DNA of 47,368 nucleotides, taken from positions 1 through 47,368 of the forward strand of contig MEXP01000024.1 in NCBI GenBank assembly GCA_001773725.1, written 5' to 3'. Positions 2,478-31,580 of this stretch are shown one piece after another. The notes under the pieces were generated by a model. It worked only from the letters and a program-made list of their open reading frames with translations, did not search any database and was not told where the DNA came from. This DNA is from Candidatus Amesbacteria bacterium RIFCSPLOWO2_01_FULL_49_25. Lineage in GTDB: Bacteria > Patescibacteriota > Microgenomatia > CAZETR01 > Amesbacteraceae. A program made the translations under genes and the position numbers. Each line of letters begins with the position of its first letter. The first letter of the stretch is position 1.

Positions 2478-4769
2478 ATGAAAAAAACTGCCAAATATAT
2501 CCGCTGGTTTTCCGAAATATCCAAAAGTGACATCGCTATAGCCGGCGGCAAAGGTGCCAATTTAGGCGAACTCACCCAGGCCAAGATACCCGTCCCACCG
2601 GGTTTTGTCATCCTCTCATCAGCCTATTTCGACTTCCTGGACGCCAACGACTTACGTCCCCAAATAAAAAACATTCTACTAAAATGCGATGTCTCAGATA
2701 CAAGACAACTTGAGTCCGCCTCCGATAAAGTCCAAAAACTCCTTCACTCTGCCGAAATGCCTGAACAAGTCTCCCAAGAGCTGTTTACCAGCTATGACCA
2801 GCTCGGCTCTAGCTTAGCCGTGGCAGTTCGCTCCTCAGCCACCGCCGAAGATCTGCCCGACGCCTCGTTTGCCGGTCAGCAGGAGTCTTATCTCAATGTC
2901 ATAGGCGATACAAATCTTTTAATAAAAGTTCGCCAATGCTGGGAGTCGCTTTTTGGCGCCCGGGCTATATTTTACCGAGACCAAAAAAAATTCGACCATT
3001 TCAAAGTGGGCATCGCCGTACCTGTCCAGAAAATGGTCCAGTCCGAAGTCTCCGGTGTCATGTTTACTACCGACCCCATCTCCCAAAATCGCGACCGCAT
3101 CATAGTCGAGGCGATCTACGGTCTGGGTGATTATATCGTCCAGGGTGTGGTCACCCCGGATCACTACGAAATATCCCGCGCTTCCGGCAAAATCACCGTC
3201 AAAATTCCCTCGACCCAAACTATCATGGAGGTCAGAAAGGCTCAAGGGGTAAAGCAAGTCCCTGTCCCCAAAAAACTCCAGGGTCTTCCCAAGCTTACTG
3301 ACAAGCAAATCTTAGAAATCGCCGATATTGGCAAAAGAATTCATCGTCACTATTTCTTTCCCCAGGACATCGAATGGGCCAGGGAAAATGGCAAGTTCTA
3401 CGTCGTCCAATCCCGTCCCATCACAACCTTAAAATCTGACCTTTCAAAAGAATATTCCCCCTCAAAACCTGCCCAAATTCACGCCAACCCTATTTTGAAA
3501 GGAGCACCCGCCTCACCGGGTCTTGTCTGGGGACCAGTCAAAATCATCGACGTCAAGCACTTAGACCAGGTCAAAGCCGGAGACATCATGGTTACCGATA
3601 TGACCACCCCGGACTTCGTGCCTGCTATGAAACGGGCCGCCGGTATCATTACCAATCGTGGCGGGCTCACCTCCCACGCCGCCATCGTCTCCCGCGAACT
3701 CGGCGTTCCCTGCATAGTCGGGACCTCCACCGCCACTACCGATCTCAAAAATGGCATGATCATCACCCTAAACGGCTCCACCGGCGAGATTTTTCCAGGT
3801 TCTCCCAGTCCCTCCTCACCCATTACCTCGCAAAACACCCAACCCTCTCCTTACAATTTCCAATTACCCAAAAATTTCAAGACTGCCACCAAACTTTACG
3901 TAAATTTGGCTGAACCCGAAGCCGCAGACAGAGTAGCCGAAAGAAACGTCGATGGAGTGGGACTTCTTAGGGCAGAATTCATGATCGCCAATCTTGGAGT
4001 CCACCCCAAAAAAGTCATCGCCGAAGGTAAGCAAAAACAGTACGTTCACGATCTGGCAGAATCAATGACCAAATTTTGTCGGGCCTTCGATCCCCGTCCC
4101 GTAATCTACCGAGCCACAGACTTCAAAACCAACGAATACCGCTCCCTCAAGGGCGGTGAGGCCTATGAACCCCAAGAATCAAATCCCATGCTTGGGTTTC
4201 GCGGAGCTCTCCGCTACATCAAAAACCCCGACGTCTTCAACCTCGAGCTGGAAGCCATTAAACGGGTCAGAAATACCCATGGTTACAAAAATTTACATCT
4301 CATGATCCCCTTTGTCTCATCGGTTCCTGAACTGGTCGATGTCAAAAAACTAGTCGCTGCTACCGGTCTTTATCGCTCTGGGTCATTCAAGCTTTGGATG
4401 ATGGTGGAAATTCCCTCAAATGTCATCCTCCTGGAAGACTTTATCAACGTCGGCCTGGATGGCGTCTCAATAGGCAGTAACGACCTCACCATGCTCATTT
4501 TGGGAACCGATCGGGACAACCAGGATGTAGCCCCCCAATTCGATGAGCGAAACCCCGCCGTCCTCTGGGCCTTGGAAAAGACTGTCAAGACCAGTCTAAA
4601 AATGGGCATTACCTGTGGAATATGCGGCCAAGCTCCATCCGAATATCCCGACCTGGTAGAAAAGCTGGTTAGCTGGGGGATTACCAGCATCTCAGTCAAT
4701 CCCGACGCCATCGAGCGTACTCGCGAAATCATTTATCATAATGAATTAAAAATAGTCAACAAAATTTAA
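2478..4769 (+). CDS. ppsA: Phosphoenolpyruvate synthase (pyruvate, water dikinase)
   Basis: N-term GGKGANLGEL, AVRSSATAEDLPDASFAGQQ; GGLTSHAAIVSRELGVPCIVG; C-term PEP-utilising TIM-barrel motifs. Confidence 0.93.
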   Translation: MKKTAKYIRWFSEISKSDIAIAGGKGANLGELTQAKIPVPPGFVILSSAYFDFLDANDLRPQIKNILLKCDVSDTRQLESASDKVQKLLHSAEMPEQVSQELFTSYDQLGSSLAVAVRSSATAEDLPDASFAGQQESYLNVIGDTNLLIKVRQCWESLFGARAIFYRDQKKFDHFKVGIAVPVQKMVQSEVSGVMFTTDPISQNRDRIIVEAIYGLGDYIVQGVVTPDHYEISRASGKITVKIPSTQTIMEVRKAQGVKQVPVPKKLQGLPKLTDKQILEIADIGKRIHRHYFFPQDIEWARENGKFYVVQSRPITTLKSDLSKEYSPSKPAQIHANPILKGAPASPGLVWGPVKIIDVKHLDQVKAGDIMVTDMTTPDFVPAMKRAAGIITNRGGLTSHAAIVSRELGVPCIVGTSTATTDLKNGMIITLNGSTGEIFPGSPSPSSPITSQNTQPSPYNFQLPKNFKTATKLYVNLAEPEAADRVAERNVDGVGLLRAEFMIANLGVHPKKVIAEGKQKQYVHDLAESMTKFCRAFDPRPVIYRATDFKTNEYRSLKGGEAYEPQESNPMLGFRGALRYIKNPDVFNLELEAIKRVRNTHGYKNLHLMIPFVSSVPELVDVKKLVAATGLYRSGSFKLWMMVEIPSNVILLEDFINVGLDGVSIGSNDLTMLILGTDRDNQDVAPQFDERNPAVLWALEKTVKTSLKMGITCGICGQAPSEYPDLVEKLVSWGITSISVNPDAIERTREIIYHNELKIVNKI

Positions 4770-26197: not shown

Positions 26198-26593
26198 ATG
26201 AATTACGAATTAATTGCCCGACTCCAAGAAATCGACTATTCCATGCACATCCGGGACATCGCCTCAGGCTCTCTTGAGCCCTACATCATTTCAGGTCTCC
26301 TAGCCGCACTTTTTTGTCTGACCGGGACAGGCAGAAGCCAAGCCGGCTCAGAGTATCTCAACCATAACGGAATCCCCTCCATCTGCGTCGAAGGTGGCCT
26401 TCGTTACCTACGCGAAGAAATGGACCGCTACTCCCAAATGCAAGCCATCTCCACCTTAAACCGCTTGCCGTTTCTAATTGCCCACATAGATAAGCAAGAG
26501 AAAAAAGACTATCTTACATTGCTATCCCTAATGCGAGTCGAATACCACCAATGGCCCCAGGAAGCACTTGCCTCCATCCAATCCCGACTCTAG
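26198..26593 (+). CDS. Hypothetical protein
   Basis: 131-aa ORF with TATAAT-N6-ATG. Confidence 0.6.
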   Translation: MNYELIARLQEIDYSMHIRDIASGSLEPYIISGLLAALFCLTGTGRSQAGSEYLNHNGIPSICVEGGLRYLREEMDRYSQMQAISTLNRLPFLIAHIDKQEKKDYLTLLSLMRVEYHQWPQEALASIQSRL

Positions 26594-26645
26594 CTGCGGG
26601 GCAGCGAGTCGAACCCCAATACCAGCATCCAAAGTGCCGTGTCCT
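26592..26645 (-). pseudogene. Degenerate tRNA-Gln-like 3' portion
   Basis: Anticodon arm CGGCA-CTTTGGA-TGCTG and TTCGACTC T-loop kept; no matching 5' acceptor strand. Confidence 0.5.
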
Positions 26646-26687
26646 TAGCCCTGAGTCTGCCGAAGGGCGGTTAAGTCAACTATCCCG

Positions 26688-26758
26688 CTGCGGGACTTGG
26701 ATTCGAACCAAGATAGCGGGATCCAAAGTCCCGAGTCCTACCATTAGACGATCCCGCA
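26688..26758 (-). tRNA. tRNA-Gln(TTG)
   Basis: TGCGGGA acceptor, D arm, CTTTGGA anticodon loop, CTTGG-TTCGAAT-CCAAG T arm. Confidence 0.9.
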
Positions 26759-26794
26759 GCGCGGTAGTTGACGTCCCGTTAGACGATCCGGTGC

Positions 26795-26918: not shown

Positions 26919-27260
26919 ATGGAATGTCATATCGACAAACACGATTGCCAGCTTAAAGGCTGCACGCACCAGGAGATGCCGTACTGCACTCGCTCTATCA
27001 ATCGCTTAACAAACTCACTAACTCAACTCCATTCAGGTAAATCTCAGCCTTTCGAAGCATGGTTCAACGATCGCTTAGCCAACTTGGATCTCAACGACGG
27101 GACCCCATTCACGCTCTGGTGGCTAATGATCCAAAACTTATCAGAAATCATAGACGTTCCCATGCCCCATATACTCAAATATATTTCCTCCCGACGCACC
27201 ACCCAACCCTGGCCCGCACTTGTGCCCCCGGCTAGAATCGAACTAGCATCTTATCCTTAG
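26919..27260 (+). CDS. Hypothetical Cys/His-containing protein (C-terminus runs into opposite-strand tRNA-Arg)
   Basis: MECHIDKHDCQLKGCTHQEMPYC... Confidence 0.4.
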   Translation: MECHIDKHDCQLKGCTHQEMPYCTRSINRLTNSLTQLHSGKSQPFEAWFNDRLANLDLNDGTPFTLWWLMIQNLSEIIDVPMPHILKYISSRRTTQPWPALVPPARIELASYP

Positions 27261-27294
27261 AAGGGATTTGCTCTATCCATTGAGCTACGGGGGC
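27223..27294 (-). tRNA. tRNA-Arg(TCT)
   Basis: GCCCCCG/CGGGGGC acceptor; loop CTTCTAA; T arm GCTAG-TTCGATT-CTAGC. Confidence 0.9.
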
Positions 27295-27326
27295 TCATCC
27301 CATTTTACCCCATCCCAATCTTCTCC

Positions 27327-27386
27327 GAGGGAAGCCCAAGCTGACAGCTAGCACACTGCCAGCTCATCTTAGAGTGGGCTTCCCTC
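27327..27386 (-). ncRNA. Long two-tier hairpin between the hammerhead and tRNA-Arg
   Basis: Perfect 12-bp inverted repeat GAGGGAAGCCCA/TGGGCTTCCCTC; inner 8-bp stem AGCTGACA/TGCCAGCT with one G-U. Confidence 0.7.
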
Positions 27387-27399
27387 GCAAAAGACTTTC

Positions 27400-27452
27400 A
27401 GCAGTTTCGTCCTTTCGGACTCATCAGTCCCGGCACACACCGGAAAACTACT
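27400..27452 (-). ncRNA. Type III hammerhead ribozyme
   Basis: Minus strand AGTAGT-T-TTCCGG-TGTGTG-CCGGGA-CTGATGA-GTCC-GAAA-GGAC-GAA-ACTGCT: stems I, II, III and both conserved core strands present; predicted cleavage after GUU. Confidence 0.93.
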
Positions 27453-27597
27453 AGATCGGAAGTGCAGGGAAAATTGCTTTGGGGTTTATATTAAAAAATA
27501 TATATAAAACAATGATTGCTTAACGCAACACCCAAATCAACTTGACCTACACTCCGCGATCTCTTTAACCAAAAAATTATCCAGCTTCAAGCTAGAT

Positions 27598-27782
27598 CTA
27601 GCGCAAATTTTGCTAGGAAGCTTTTGGCTTTCTTTTTTGGTCTTCGAGATCTCTCGAGGATATTGGATAATGATAATACTGATTCCTGGTTTCCGCTCAA
27701 CCGTCGGGTTGATTTAAGTAATGGTTTTGTCACCATTTACGGAAAACCAGGTAATCAGTCCTCTCGAGGTTAGCTTGCGCTA
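27598..27782 (-). ncRNA. Candidate structured RNA (branched inverted-repeat element) at the end of the surface-protein gene
   Basis: Outer TAGCGCAA/TTGCGCTA; long imperfect stem ACTGATTCCTGGTTTCCG/CGGAAAACCAGGTAATCAGT; inner TCAACC-GTCG-GGTTGA and GTAATGG/CCATTTAC hairpins. Confidence 0.55.
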
Positions 27783-28630
27783 ATCCCTGTTTCCCCCTTC
27801 TTCCGGCGCCTGGCCAGCAAAACCGCCAGCACTAACAGCGGAATCAAAATCGCTCCGCAAAGACCGGCAACCAATTGGCCCCAGTCTTTAAATATCGCCG
27901 GAAGAAATACGTTCAACCCCAGCCCCCCATCGAGGTACCACTTGTCCCCTTGAACCTGCGGTTTGTGCCCGGGCACCACGGTGGGTGTCTGGGTCGGGGT
28001 CGACGTGCTAGTCGGCGTCGGTGAAGAAAAAACTTGAACCGTCGACGTGATTGCCGGCACCGGGGTGGTGACAACTTGCGTCACCGTAAAAACAGTCCCC
28101 GGGCCAACCGTAGGCGTCGGAGTCGGCGTTGCCGTCTCCTCAATTTCTTCACAATCTTCCTCACAATCCCCACCGGGCACATCTGTTTCTGCAGAAGTCG
28201 GATCGGGCGTCCGCGTGCTCGGGGGTTCCGTCGGGATTTCCGTCGGATCGGGCGTCCGCGTCGCTTTGTGCTCTTCGGTCGGAACTGGCGTCCGCGTGCT
28301 CGGGGGTTCCGTCGGGTTTTCCGTCGGATCGGGCGTTTCAGTGATCGACTCTGGAGTCTCCGTCACTTCGGGGATTGGGCATAGCCCCTCTTCCCATTCC
28401 GGGTTAGGCTTTTGCCCTTCCTCAAAGTACCGCTCCTGGCAGTCCCCGTTCCCCAGAAAGTGATGGTACCACCCGGGGGTGGTTGAGGGCTGCGGAGGAT
28501 CCGCGTTCACAACTGCTACGTTTAAAATCACCCCTACTGCGGCCGCAATCACAATGAAGGACCGAAATCCTTCGACGATGCGGTTATTCTTTTTAATCCC
28601 CTTGATTATGTCCAGTAAACTAGCGTTCAT
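27770..28630 (-). CDS. Membrane-anchored Pro/Thr-rich surface protein
   Basis: N-terminal hydrophobic segment; repeats TETPDPTENPTEPPSTRTPVPT / TRTPDPTEIPTEPPSTRTPDPT; C-terminal TM then RRRKK; GGAG RBS. Confidence 0.8.
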   Translation of the reverse strand: MNASLLDIIKGIKKNNRIVEGFRSFIVIAAAVGVILNVAVVNADPPQPSTTPGWYHHFLGNGDCQERYFEEGQKPNPEWEEGLCPIPEVTETPESITETPDPTENPTEPPSTRTPVPTEEHKATRTPDPTEIPTEPPSTRTPDPTSAETDVPGGDCEEDCEEIEETATPTPTPTVGPGTVFTVTQVVTTPVPAITSTVQVFSSPTPTSTSTPTQTPTVVPGHKPQVQGDKWYLDGGLGLNVFLPAIFKDWGQLVAGLCGAILIPLLVLAVLLARRRKKGETGISAS

Positions 28631-28642
28631 TTCGAATTCTCC

Positions 28643-28714
28643 TTAGCTCCTATCCGTGGTCGTAATGACCTTTCCTTTTTTCGTCCGCTTCTTACCTGAG
28701 GATGTCGTTTCCAC
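28643..28714 (-). CDS. 23-aa basic peptide ORF upstream of the surface protein
   Basis: GTG start after AAAGGAGGTGAGAAAA; METTSSGKKRTKKGKVITTTDRS*. Confidence 0.45.
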   Translation of the reverse strand: METTSSGKKRTKKGKVITTTDRS

Positions 28715-28967
28715 TTTTCTCACCTCCTTTCGGTGTGAGAAAAAAACGGATTCCGAAATCTGAAAGGGATTGTCCCTAACGCCATGTTTTTGAATAGCTT
28801 CTCTGCTATCCCTATTGGCTTTCTACTTTTCTCTCATCTTCTTTTGGATTTTCTCTCCCAACACCTCGCAAAGCGGGGTCCTATAGGAAGTTAGCTGACC
28901 ATGAGGGTCAACCATCCGCAAAAGATTCGACAAAAAAGCTTCGAGTCAACAAGACTAAAAAGTGGGG

Positions 28968-29087
28968 TGTGATTTTTTAGTTCCAACAGTCACATTTTTT
29001 TGGGACTGTGGGCCATCGCCAAAGGCAAGAGGTGCCTTATAGTTGGCGATGACTGGTCCGCATAAGCGGGCCGCAGCTAAAATCACA
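28968..29087. ncRNA. Candidate multi-helix structured RNA, strand unresolved
   Basis: Closing stem TGTGATTTTTTAG/CTAAAATCACA encloses ACAGTC/GACTGT, CATCGCCAA/TTGGCGATG (with AGGCA/TGCCT inside) and GGTCCGC-ATAA-GCGGGCC. Confidence 0.6.
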
Positions 29088-29122
29088 TACTCTCCAATTG
29101 AGAGCACATAAGATTGAAATAG

Positions 29123-29263
29123 TTGACCAAAGAAGACTTACTAAAAATTGGCAAAGTTGTAAACGAAGCTATCGATTCCCGTGTATCAGGAATTATCGAC
29201 AAACGTGTTCCTGGAATTGTAGAAAAGCAACTCACACCCATCAAAAAACAACTTCAATCCTAA
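29123..29263 (+). CDS. Small coiled-coil-like protein (46 aa, TTG start)
   Basis: MTKEDLLKIGKVVNEAIDSRVSGIIDKRVPGIVEKQLTPIKKQLQS*. Confidence 0.5.
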   Translation: MTKEDLLKIGKVVNEAIDSRVSGIIDKRVPGIVEKQLTPIKKQLQS

Positions 29264-29387
29264 GTGCTCCCAACTGGAGTTCATCCAATATCCAAAAGAT
29301 CTCTATTTTTAATGTGCTAGAATTAAAAAAGGTCTATATTCTAGGATAGCATACAAGCTATTTGTAGAATCACTAGAATACTCCTAT

Positions 29388-29416
29388 AGGATACCATAAA
29401 CTACAGGCTTTGTCAA
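29388..29416 (-). promoter_or_regulatory. Minus-strand sigma70-like promoter reading into the RNA-rich locus
   Basis: TTGACA-N17-TATCCT. Confidence 0.5.
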
Positions 29417-29441
29417 GAGGTCTAAGTGCTACAATAACTTT

Positions 29442-31580
29442 ATGGATTTAACTGTTCTCTCGCTTCGTGTCCCCCGCGAATCCGAAAACACTCCCGAGCA
29501 GACAGCCCAGCTTTTAGCCTCCCTGGCCAAAGCCGCCCAGAAGGGCACCCACATCAGCCTGGAAGTGACTCTGGAAACCGGCCAAATCACCTTCGCCGCG
29601 GTCTACCCCAAATCACTGCACACCTTCATCCAATCCCAGCTTCTGGCCACCTACCCCGATGTGATCATGACTGAAATAAAAGATTACTTGCATAATTGGC
29701 TCATTGAAAAAAACATTGATTTGAGCATAATTCGCCAAGCTTACGCCACCTACTTTCCTCTGCGGGACTACGCCGATTTCAAAGAAGTCGACCCCATGCT
29801 TCCCCTTTTGGGAGTTCTCTCCAAAGCCAGGACGCAGGACAAGATCCTAGTCCAGTTCGTGCTCACACCTGCTCCTTCCTCCGTGCAAAGACAAGCCTAC
29901 ATCTACACCCACCCCAACTCGCCAGCTGGCGAATACAAAGACAAACCCATAATCGAAGGCAAAAAGCTCATCGAAGACAAACTCTCCCAGCCCTTAGTCG
30001 GCGTCTCCATCCATTTTGCCGCTTCCCGGCCCGAATTGCTCCACGATCTCACCGGAGCCATCTCTGTTCTCAACAGACCCGACGGCAACTCCCTTATTAG
30101 GGGCAGATTATGGTCTTGGCAGCGCCGCAATCTCTGGCACAGCATCTACGAACGCATCCCGTTCAGAAGCTTCTTTTCCCCCCTGCCCGTTTTAAACGTC
30201 ATGGAACTCTCCTCGCTCTGGCATCTCCCTGGTGTCTACACCAAGCTCCCCAACGTCGCCTGGGCTCCCAGTTCATCGTTTGTCGAAGCTCCCGAAAACC
30301 TGCCGGTTTACTCCCCCAGCGATGAACAAAGTAACCAAGTAACTAATAACCAGGTCAATTTCTTCGCCAAAACGGTATTTCGAAATCAAGAAACCATCTT
30401 TGGCCTCAAGCTTACCGATCGCTTGCGCCACGTTTATATCCTGGGCAAGTCAGGCACCGGCAAATCCACTTTACTGGAAAACATGGCCGTAGACGACTTC
30501 AAAAAGGGCAGGGGAGTCGCCTTCATCGATCCCCACGGTGACGCCTGCGACAATCTCCTCGATTACATTCCCTCTTCACGCATCAATGACGTCATTTTCT
30601 TCAACCCCTCGGATCGCGAACACCCTATTCATTTAAATATTTTGGAGTCATCCTCACCTGAAAACGCCGAGCTGGTTGCCTCCGGCATTGTCTCCATTTT
30701 CCACAAGCTTTACGGCCACTCCTGGGGCCCCCGCCTCGAATATATTTTACGAAATACCCTTCTCACCCTCACGGCCATCTCCGGCTCCACTCTCCCAGAC
30801 GTCGTCCGCATGCTCACCGATACGGCGTTCAGGAAAAAAATCTACCCCCAGCTCACAAATCTTCAGCTCCTGGACTTTTGGAAAAACGAGTTCGACCGCC
30901 TGGAAGAAAAAACCAGGACCGAGCAAATTTCCTCGATATTAAACAAGGTTGGTCAATTCGTTTCCTCTCCCCTTATCCAAAACGTCATCTCTCACCCCCG
31001 TTCAACTCTCAATCTAGAAGATGTCTTAAACTCCGGCAAAATCTTGATCGCCAACCTTTCCCAAGGCAAGCTCGGCGAAGACAACTCCGCCCTCCTGGGA
31101 GCCATGCTCATAACCAAGCTCCAGCTGGCAGCCATGTCCCGAGTCGATACTCCAATCGAAAAACGCTCGCCCTTTTTTCTCTATGTCGACGAGTTTCAAA
31201 ACTTTGCCACCGAGTCATTCATAAAAATCCTCTCCGAATCCCGCAAGTACGGCCTGGGGCTTACCCTGGCCAATCAGTACATTGCCCAGATCCCGGAGCC
31301 AATTCAAAAAGCCATTTTCGGCAACGTCGGCACCGTCATCTCTTTCGTATTAGGCTCAGAAGACGCCCGGATTATGGAAGCCGAGTTTGGCACCAAATTT
31401 ACTCGCGACTCTCTCGTTTCCCTTCAAAAGCACAACATTGCCCTCAAAATGACCGTCGACGGCGCCGTCACTCAACCATTTCTAGCTGCCACCCTGCCTC
31501 CACTCAAATCCAAAAATCTCAACCGCACCAAAGTTATTGCCCAGTCCCGCTCGCGCTGGTCGCGTAAAACCTCCAAATAG
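29442..31580 (+). CDS. TraD/VirD4-like conjugation-type ATPase
   Basis: Walker A ILGKSGTGKSTLLENM, GVAFIDPHGDACDNLL, Walker B-like FFLYVDEFQNFATESF; TACAAT-N6-ATG. Confidence 0.88.
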   Translation: MDLTVLSLRVPRESENTPEQTAQLLASLAKAAQKGTHISLEVTLETGQITFAAVYPKSLHTFIQSQLLATYPDVIMTEIKDYLHNWLIEKNIDLSIIRQAYATYFPLRDYADFKEVDPMLPLLGVLSKARTQDKILVQFVLTPAPSSVQRQAYIYTHPNSPAGEYKDKPIIEGKKLIEDKLSQPLVGVSIHFAASRPELLHDLTGAISVLNRPDGNSLIRGRLWSWQRRNLWHSIYERIPFRSFFSPLPVLNVMELSSLWHLPGVYTKLPNVAWAPSSSFVEAPENLPVYSPSDEQSNQVTNNQVNFFAKTVFRNQETIFGLKLTDRLRHVYILGKSGTGKSTLLENMAVDDFKKGRGVAFIDPHGDACDNLLDYIPSSRINDVIFFNPSDREHPIHLNILESSSPENAELVASGIVSIFHKLYGHSWGPRLEYILRNTLLTLTAISGSTLPDVVRMLTDTAFRKKIYPQLTNLQLLDFWKNEFDRLEEKTRTEQISSILNKVGQFVSSPLIQNVISHPRSTLNLEDVLNSGKILIANLSQGKLGEDNSALLGAMLITKLQLAAMSRVDTPIEKRSPFFLYVDEFQNFATESFIKILSESRKYGLGLTLANQYIAQIPEPIQKAIFGNVGTVISFVLGSEDARIMEAEFGTKFTRDSLVSLQKHNIALKMTVDGAVTQPFLAATLPPLKSKNLNRTKVIAQSRSRWSRKTSK

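What the first reader, a model, noticed from the sequence alone, without database searches (positions are those of the whole stretch)
27400..27452. Complete type III hammerhead ribozyme in a probable CPR chromosome
Seen directly on the minus strand: 5'-AGTAGT(U)TTCCGG-TGTGTG-CCGGGA-CTGATGA-GTCC-GAAA-GGAC-GAA-ACTGCT-3'. Stem III is 6 bp with one G-U, stem I 6 bp with one G-U, stem II GTCC/GGAC with a GAAA loop. Both invariant core strands (CUGAUGA and GAA) are exact and the cleavage triplet is GUU, which fits the NUH rule for hammerheads. The topology matches the satellite-RNA-type (open stem III) motif. It lies between a surface-protein gene and tRNA-Arg(TCT), not next to an obvious phage gene. 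Function is unknown.
Basis: partly seen in the sequence, partly recalled or inferred. Interest (0 to 1): 0.93.

Follow-up and report, generated by a model that had tools for sequence, protein, structure and literature searches.

The report
Hammerhead ribozyme ending a bacterial mRNA
A tiny bacterium of the Candidate Phyla Radiation carries a complete self-cutting RNA (a type III hammerhead ribozyme) just after a stable hairpin behind a protein gene, an arrangement that recurs across this group and suggests that such ribozymes cut mRNAs to give them defined 3' ends.

Summary
The hammerhead is real: minus strand 27453-27399, exact core, three helices in the right register, GUU cleavage triplet, loops UGUGUG/GAAA. 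Rfam Hammerhead_3 gives 39.1 bits, E=3e-7 (below the curated 48.5, but no CPR hammerhead found passes that cut-off). It forms with >0.9 pairing probability in most pairs even in a 1.5 kb transcript. The genome is a member of class Microgenomatia (inferred).

It is one of many. Type III hammerheads occur in 26/333 sampled CPR genomes and 0/200 Pseudomonadota. In 137 non-redundant CPR cases the upstream gene is co-directional (106/130) and ends a median 72 nt before the ribozyme; a non-terminator hairpin abuts its 5' side (56% versus 5% in shuffles). The upstream genes are small orphans; about a fifth have a boxA-like antitermination box just downstream. The window fits the gene-hairpin-ribozyme plan but lacks a clear boxA.

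Best explanation: co-transcriptional cleavage gives the orphan surface-protein mRNA a hairpin-protected 3' end and separates it from tRNA-Arg, which appears to have its own promoter. Cleavage and function are inferred, not shown. Hammerheads flanking small bacterial/phage genes are already known; the CPR-wide hairpin-ribozyme(-boxA) module appears undescribed in the library searched.

The parts
27399..27453 (-). Type III hammerhead ribozyme
   Evidence: RF00008 39.1 bits, E=3.2e-7, model 1-54; fold z -4.1; pairing probabilities in context
27445..27446 (-). Predicted cleavage site, 3' of U27446 (triplet G-U-U)
   Evidence: position H17 of the hammerhead register read from the sequence; cleavage itself not tested
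27457..27556 (-). Long hairpin ending 1-3 nt before stem III of the ribozyme; would end the 5' cleavage product
27558..27651 (-). Second hairpin of the 3' untranslated region
   Evidence: inverted repeat I3
27653..27768 (-). First hairpin of the 3' untranslated region, just after the stop codon
   Evidence: region 27455-27769 fold z -9.8; a longer fold pairs the outer parts differently
27770..28630 (-). Orphan 286-aa predicted secreted or surface protein (hydrophobic N-terminal segment, Pro/Thr-rich middle, C-terminal hydrophobic segment plus RRRKKGE), the gene whose mRNA the ribozyme would end
   Evidence: translation; no Pfam hit; no convincing homologue in 58 relatives (one weak match, E=3e-4)
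27317..27396 (-). Hairpin downstream of the ribozyme, loop GUGUGCUAGC, no U-tract
   Evidence: inverted repeat I2; a hairpin with the same loop occurs in relatives G002 and G006
27299..27312 (-). TGGGGTAAAATGGG: -10-like box just upstream of tRNA-Arg; the same box lies upstream of tRNA-Lys (26886-26873)
   Evidence: repeat D7; a similar box stands at this place in G006
27222..27294 (-). tRNA-Arg(TCT), the next gene downstream
   Evidence: ARAGORN; syntenic in G003 and G006

Best explanation
The element is an active type III hammerhead that acts as a 3'-end-forming device for the orphan surface-protein mRNA upstream. Step 1 (inferred): RNA polymerase reads from the gene through its structured 3' region into the ribozyme; the hairpin has no U-tract, so it is not a classical terminator. 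Step 2 (inferred from the exact core, helices and loops): the ribozyme folds co-transcriptionally and cuts after U27446. Step 3 (follows from hammerhead chemistry): the mRNA ends in the hairpin 27556-27457 plus about 9-11 nt with a 2',3'-cyclic phosphate, a compact end that should resist 3' exonucleases, while the ribozyme body stays on the downstream piece and the mRNA is separated from tRNA-Arg, which seems to be transcribed from its own promoter. The same gene-hairpin-type III ribozyme arrangement recurs across CPR chromosomes, often in one-gene-per-ribozyme arrays; about a fifth also have a boxA-like antitermination box right after the ribozyme, which would let polymerase reload Nus factors after the cut. 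That last step is not evident in the window.
For: Ribozyme. CPR set of 137: upstream gene co-directional 106/130 (p=2e-13), stop-to-ribozyme median 72 nt, downstream co-directional 83/128. A hairpin abuts the 5' side in 56%, versus 5% in shuffles and 11% on the 3' side, usually with a 0-2 nt gap. Those hairpins lack U-tracts (mean 2.6 T in 8 nt; 8/75 with 5 or more), and cleavage would leave a 7-nt median tail. Topology: CPR 56 type III, 0 type I/II; non-CPR 6 versus 18; type III leaves the smallest tail on the mRNA. 26/333 CPR versus 0/200 Pseudomonadota genomes. boxA-like TCTTTRA: 28/136 downstream, shuffle mean 3.0 (maximum 8), 1 upstream; similar boxes stand in rRNA leaders of G002, G455 and G289.
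Against: No cleavage or transcript data. Rfam score below the gathering cut-off. The window lacks a clear boxA (AAAGTCTTTTGCG). Close relatives at the same slot lack the ribozyme: G006 has only the GUGUGCUAGC hairpin, G003 has stop-34 nt-tRNA, so it is dispensable at this locus. The downstream gene is also often co-directional, so a role for the downstream RNA is not excluded. The CPR statistics used a home-made gene finder, a parser that requires pairing, and mononucleotide shuffles for the hairpin test; CPR assignment of 'uncultured bacterium' loci was not checked.
Confidence: 0.55

Rival explanations
1. Operon or polycistron processing: the ribozyme mainly separates co-transcribed units (here mRNA from the downstream tRNA; elsewhere gene from gene), without a special role in mRNA 3' protection, as Perreault et al. 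2011 proposed for phage arrays.
For: Arrays of same-strand ribozymes one gene apart (about 380-3,500 nt); downstream genes co-directional 83/128; published proposal in PMC3088659.
Against: The hairpin sits specifically on the 5' side and directly abuts the ribozyme; in the window the tRNA carries its own -10-like box; in about a third of cases the next gene is on the other strand.
Confidence: 0.25
2. Relic or passenger of a mobile, possibly phage-derived, one-gene cassette: the ribozyme served the transfer or expression of the cassette elsewhere and has little function here.
For: Orphan upstream gene, variable slot next to tRNA-Arg, ribozyme absent in relatives; degenerate copies in G002; same hairpin-ribozyme plan in IMG/VR contigs; near-identical ribozymes behind unrelated genes within a genome.
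Against: The window copy is fully intact; neighbouring genes show no prophage; in 10 ribozyme-bearing genomes the tyrosine recombinases do not lie near the ribozymes, except about 3 kb from one array in G447.
Confidence: 0.15
3. Chance or cryptic hammerhead-like sequence without activity.
For: Score below the Rfam gathering cut-off.
Against: E=2e-7 in its own genome; loops UGUGUG/GAAA of the common CPR type; 57/64 CPR core sites have both flanking stems versus 0.7% in shuffles.
Confidence: 0.03

Closest known systems
Bacterial and phage hammerhead clusters (Perreault et al. 2011, PMC3088659; reviewed in PMC6155905)
   Same: Hammerheads flank single small genes of unknown function; transcript processing into gene-length mRNAs was proposed
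   Different: Those were linked mainly to prophages and include types I and II; here they are type III only, in CPR chromosomes, with a hairpin abutting the 5' side and often a boxA-like box
sTRSV-type satellite RNA hammerhead (type III, RF00008)
   Same: Open stem III, GUCC/GGAC stem II, UGUG-containing loop I facing a 4-nt loop II (loop comparison from memory)
   Different: There it cuts multimers of a circular RNA replicon; here a single copy follows a protein gene
Intrinsic terminators
   Same: Would leave an mRNA ending in a hairpin plus a short tail of about 7-8 nt
   Different: No U-tract; the end would be made by RNA cleavage, not by polymerase release
boxA/Nus antitermination elements (PMC5725501: GYTCTTTAANA)
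   Same: TCTTTRA box 3-8 nt after many CPR ribozymes
   Different: Not evident in the window; no boxB examined; Nus binding not tested

Membership tests
Hammerhead ribozyme (type III) | Invariant core strands CUGANGA and GAA | tested here: met
   27427-27421 and 27408-27406 exact
Hammerhead ribozyme (type III) | Three helices in register, open at stem III | tested here: met
   stems III/I/II of 7/6/4 pairs
Hammerhead ribozyme (type III) | A15.1-U16.1 pair and NUH cleavage triplet | tested here: met
   A27405-U27447; G-U-U
Hammerhead ribozyme (type III) | Loop I-loop II tertiary contact | tested here: inconclusive
   Loops UGUGUG/GAAA are of the common CPR type; no 3D or probing data
Hammerhead ribozyme (type III) | Rfam gathering score 48.5 bits | tested here: not met
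   39.1 bits, E=3.2e-7; no CPR genome passes either. A curation cut-off, not a feature of the molecule
Hammerhead ribozyme (type III) | Self-cleavage | not testable with these tools
   needs in vitro transcription
CPR gene-hairpin-ribozyme module (described here) | Co-directional orphan gene upstream | tested here: met
   286-aa orphan, stop 316 nt upstream, longer than the typical 32-199 nt
CPR gene-hairpin-ribozyme module (described here) | Hairpin abutting the 5' side of stem III | tested here: met
   27556-27457, gap 1-3 nt; larger than usual
CPR gene-hairpin-ribozyme module (described here) | boxA-like box 3-8 nt downstream (optional, about 20%) | tested here: not met
   AAAGTCTTTTGCG; own rRNA leader has AGCTCGTTGACAAAG
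Integron cassette | Integrase gene adjacent to the array | tested here: not met
   PF00589: one to three hits per genome, near an array only in G447
Retrozyme or circular RNA replicon | Tandem ribozymes bounding a repeated noncoding unit | tested here: not met
   Single copy in the genome; the genes before ribozymes of one genome are unrelated, 2 of 36 protein pairs similar

The most novel reading that the evidence does not exclude
CPR bacteria use type III hammerheads as a general alternative to intrinsic terminators: hairpin-ribozyme(-boxA) modules end the mRNAs of orphan accessory genes, and the boxA after each cut reloads Nus factors because cleavage severs the upstream antitermination loop from RNA polymerase.
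Probability: 0.3. Interest if true: 0.85.

Novelty: new member of a known kind. Interest (0 to 1): 0.6.

Why it matters
What hammerheads do in bacteria is an open question (PMC6155905). A lineage-wide, stereotyped placement with a hairpin on one side and often a boxA-like box on the other gives a specific, testable role: making mRNA 3' ends without termination. It would be a rare case of a small self-cleaving ribozyme serving ordinary gene expression in cellular chromosomes of a very large bacterial group.

Tried and rejected
Rfam default scan: no hammerhead, because the score is below the cut-off. Integron reading: no integrase near the arrays in 9 of 10 genomes. Retrozyme/circRNA reading: single copy, different genes between copies. 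Prophage reading: few PHROG matches among 89 upstream genes and ordinary chromosomal families downstream. Hairpin as intrinsic terminator: no U-tract in most cases. GTGTGCTAG as a genome-wide repeat: only two exact copies in the genome, the other in no stable hairpin. Ribozyme as tRNA 5' processor: tRNA-Arg and tRNA-Lys each have a -10-like box directly upstream. The hairpin finder misses hairpins as large as the window's. The library held no paper joining hammerheads with CPR/Patescibacteria and none that, by title and abstract, reports boxA beside natural hammerheads.

Full report
What is there. On the minus strand, 27453-27399, the window holds a complete type III hammerhead: stem III 7 pairs (two U-G), U at the cleavage position, stem I 6 pairs with loop UGUGUG, CUGAUGA, stem II GUCC-GAAA-GGAC, GAA. 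Rfam's default scan lists only tRNAs; the permissive scan gives RF00008 at 39.1 bits, E=3.2e-7, whole model, gathering score 48.5. It is the only convincing hit in the 958-kb genome (E=2.3e-7; next 12.1 bits). The 58-nt stretch folds at z=-4.1 and the three stems keep their pairing probabilities inside a 1,501-nt transcript that includes the upstream gene; the two core-proximal stem I pairs are weak in that model.

Where it lies. Upstream on the same strand is a 286-aa predicted secreted or surface protein (27770-28630) without Pfam hits and without a convincing homologue in 58 relatives. Its 316-nt 3' region folds at z=-9.8 into three long hairpins (27768-27653, 27651-27558, 27556-27457), the last ending 1-3 nt before the ribozyme; in a 475-nt fold the outer helices rearrange but the ribozyme stays. 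Downstream comes a fourth hairpin (27396-27317, loop GUGUGCUAGC, no U-tract) and then tRNA-Arg(TCT). TGGGGTAAAAT boxes sit directly before tRNA-Arg and tRNA-Lys, and a like box precedes tRNA-Arg in relative G006, so the tRNA probably has its own promoter (inference). The slot between a TraG/TrwB-like ATPase and the tRNA-Arg/Lys/Gln cluster is syntenic in G003 and G006 but filled with other genes; G006 has the GUGUGCUAGC hairpin without a ribozyme, G003 neither. The other neighbouring genes scanned look chromosomal. The class is inferred to be Microgenomatia from relatives matching records titled Shapirobacteria.

Relatives. The nearest, G002 (same family), has three tandem units about 1.1-1.4 kb apart: one intact ribozyme, one with a mispair next to the core, one broken. 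An exact pattern for core plus stem II hit 112 stretches of GTDB genomes, mostly titled as CPR. In CPR-titled loci 57 of 64 sites also carry stems I and III in the type III register, against 0.7% with shuffled flanks. By topology: CPR 56 type III and 0 type I/II, uncultured 26 and 0, non-CPR 6 and 18, viral contigs 26 and 86. RF00008 at E<=1e-3 rings in 26 of 333 CPR genomes drawn across the phylum and in 0 of 200 Pseudomonadota genomes, which are several times larger (Fisher p=4e-6).

The shared plan. In 137 non-redundant CPR ribozymes the upstream gene is co-directional in 106/130 (p=2e-13), with its stop a median 72 nt before the ribozyme. A hairpin directly abuts the 5' side in 56%, against 5% in mononucleotide shuffles and 11% on the 3' side; gaps are mostly 0-2 nt. 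These hairpins are mostly not followed by U-tracts. Cleavage would leave the hairpin plus a 7-nt median tail on the mRNA. Type III topology leaves the ribozyme body on the downstream piece. In IMG/VR contigs type III hammerheads show the same hairpin-ribozyme plan.

The genes. The 89 upstream proteins are small (median 146 aa) and hit few Pfam or PHROG families; the 51 downstream ones hit many ordinary chromosomal families. Arrays inside normal chromosomes put about one orphan gene per ribozyme on one strand. Within a genome, ribozymes are more often alike (21% of pairs at 85% identity or more, against 2.9% between genomes) although their upstream proteins are unrelated (34 of 36 pairs). This looks cassette-like, but no integrase lies by the arrays save in G447.

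boxA. Downstream of CPR ribozymes the top enriched 6-mers spell GTTCTTTRA. TCTTTRA occurs within 60 nt in 28/136 (shuffle mean 3.0, maximum 8; upstream 1; viral 1/39), mostly 3-8 nt after stem III. It resembles the boxA consensus GYTCTTTAANA (PMC5725501), and rRNA leaders of G002, G455 and G289 carry GGCTCTTTGACA, TTTCTTTGACA and TTTCTTTGAAA. The window has AAAGTCTTTTGCG, not a clear boxA.

Interpretation. Shown by computation: a canonical type III hammerhead, its recurrence and its stereotyped place. Inferred: cleavage, 3'-end formation, protection of the mRNA, and antitermination reload. Published work already notes that bacterial hammerheads flank small non-conserved genes and may process phage transcripts (PMC3088659, PMC6155905), so the ribozyme is a new member of a known kind. 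The CPR-wide hairpin-ribozyme(-boxA) module is the part that seems new; I found no paper on it in the library searched.

Noticed in passing
window 27317-27396; L011 (minus strand) about 320-360 and 1550-1590; L323 9190-9300: Long hairpins sharing the apical loop GUGUGCUAGC, found after hammerheads in the window and G002 and without one in G006; possibly a family-specific RNA or DNA element.
   Followed up: partly
window 27222-29442; L323 4123-9334; L324 4299-8466: Slot between a TraG/TrwB-like ATPase gene and tRNA-Arg(TCT) is syntenic but holds different genes in each relative: a variable hotspot.
   Followed up: partly
window 26593-26645 and 26675-26789: Degenerate copies of parts of tRNA-Gln and an inverted repeat around tRNA-Gln: possible tRNA pseudogene or integration scar.
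   Followed up: no
L331 (G000:C1:7694-9507): The genome's 16S rRNA gene spans 1,814 nt, about 280 nt longer than the model: a likely insertion in the 16S gene.
   Followed up: no
L046 (upstream of ribozymes with cores at 4236 and 6184) and L269 (upstream of the ribozyme): Identical GAGCCTAGAGGAAGCAGAGCCTC element upstream of the hairpin-ribozyme in different CPR genomes.
   Followed up: no
L271, L272, L280 (5' of the ribozyme): Conserved CACACGCTAGAGTC directly before the ribozyme in genomes of one CPR family (f55), after different genes.
   Followed up: no
L159 3341, 4208, 6018: Viral contig with three hairpin-hammerhead III modules between consecutive genes, each hairpin with a GTGTCTTYAAAGACAC core.
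   Followed up: no
window 28197-28336: 59-nt direct repeats (95% identical) inside the orphan surface-protein gene, in its Pro/Thr-rich coding part.
   Followed up: no
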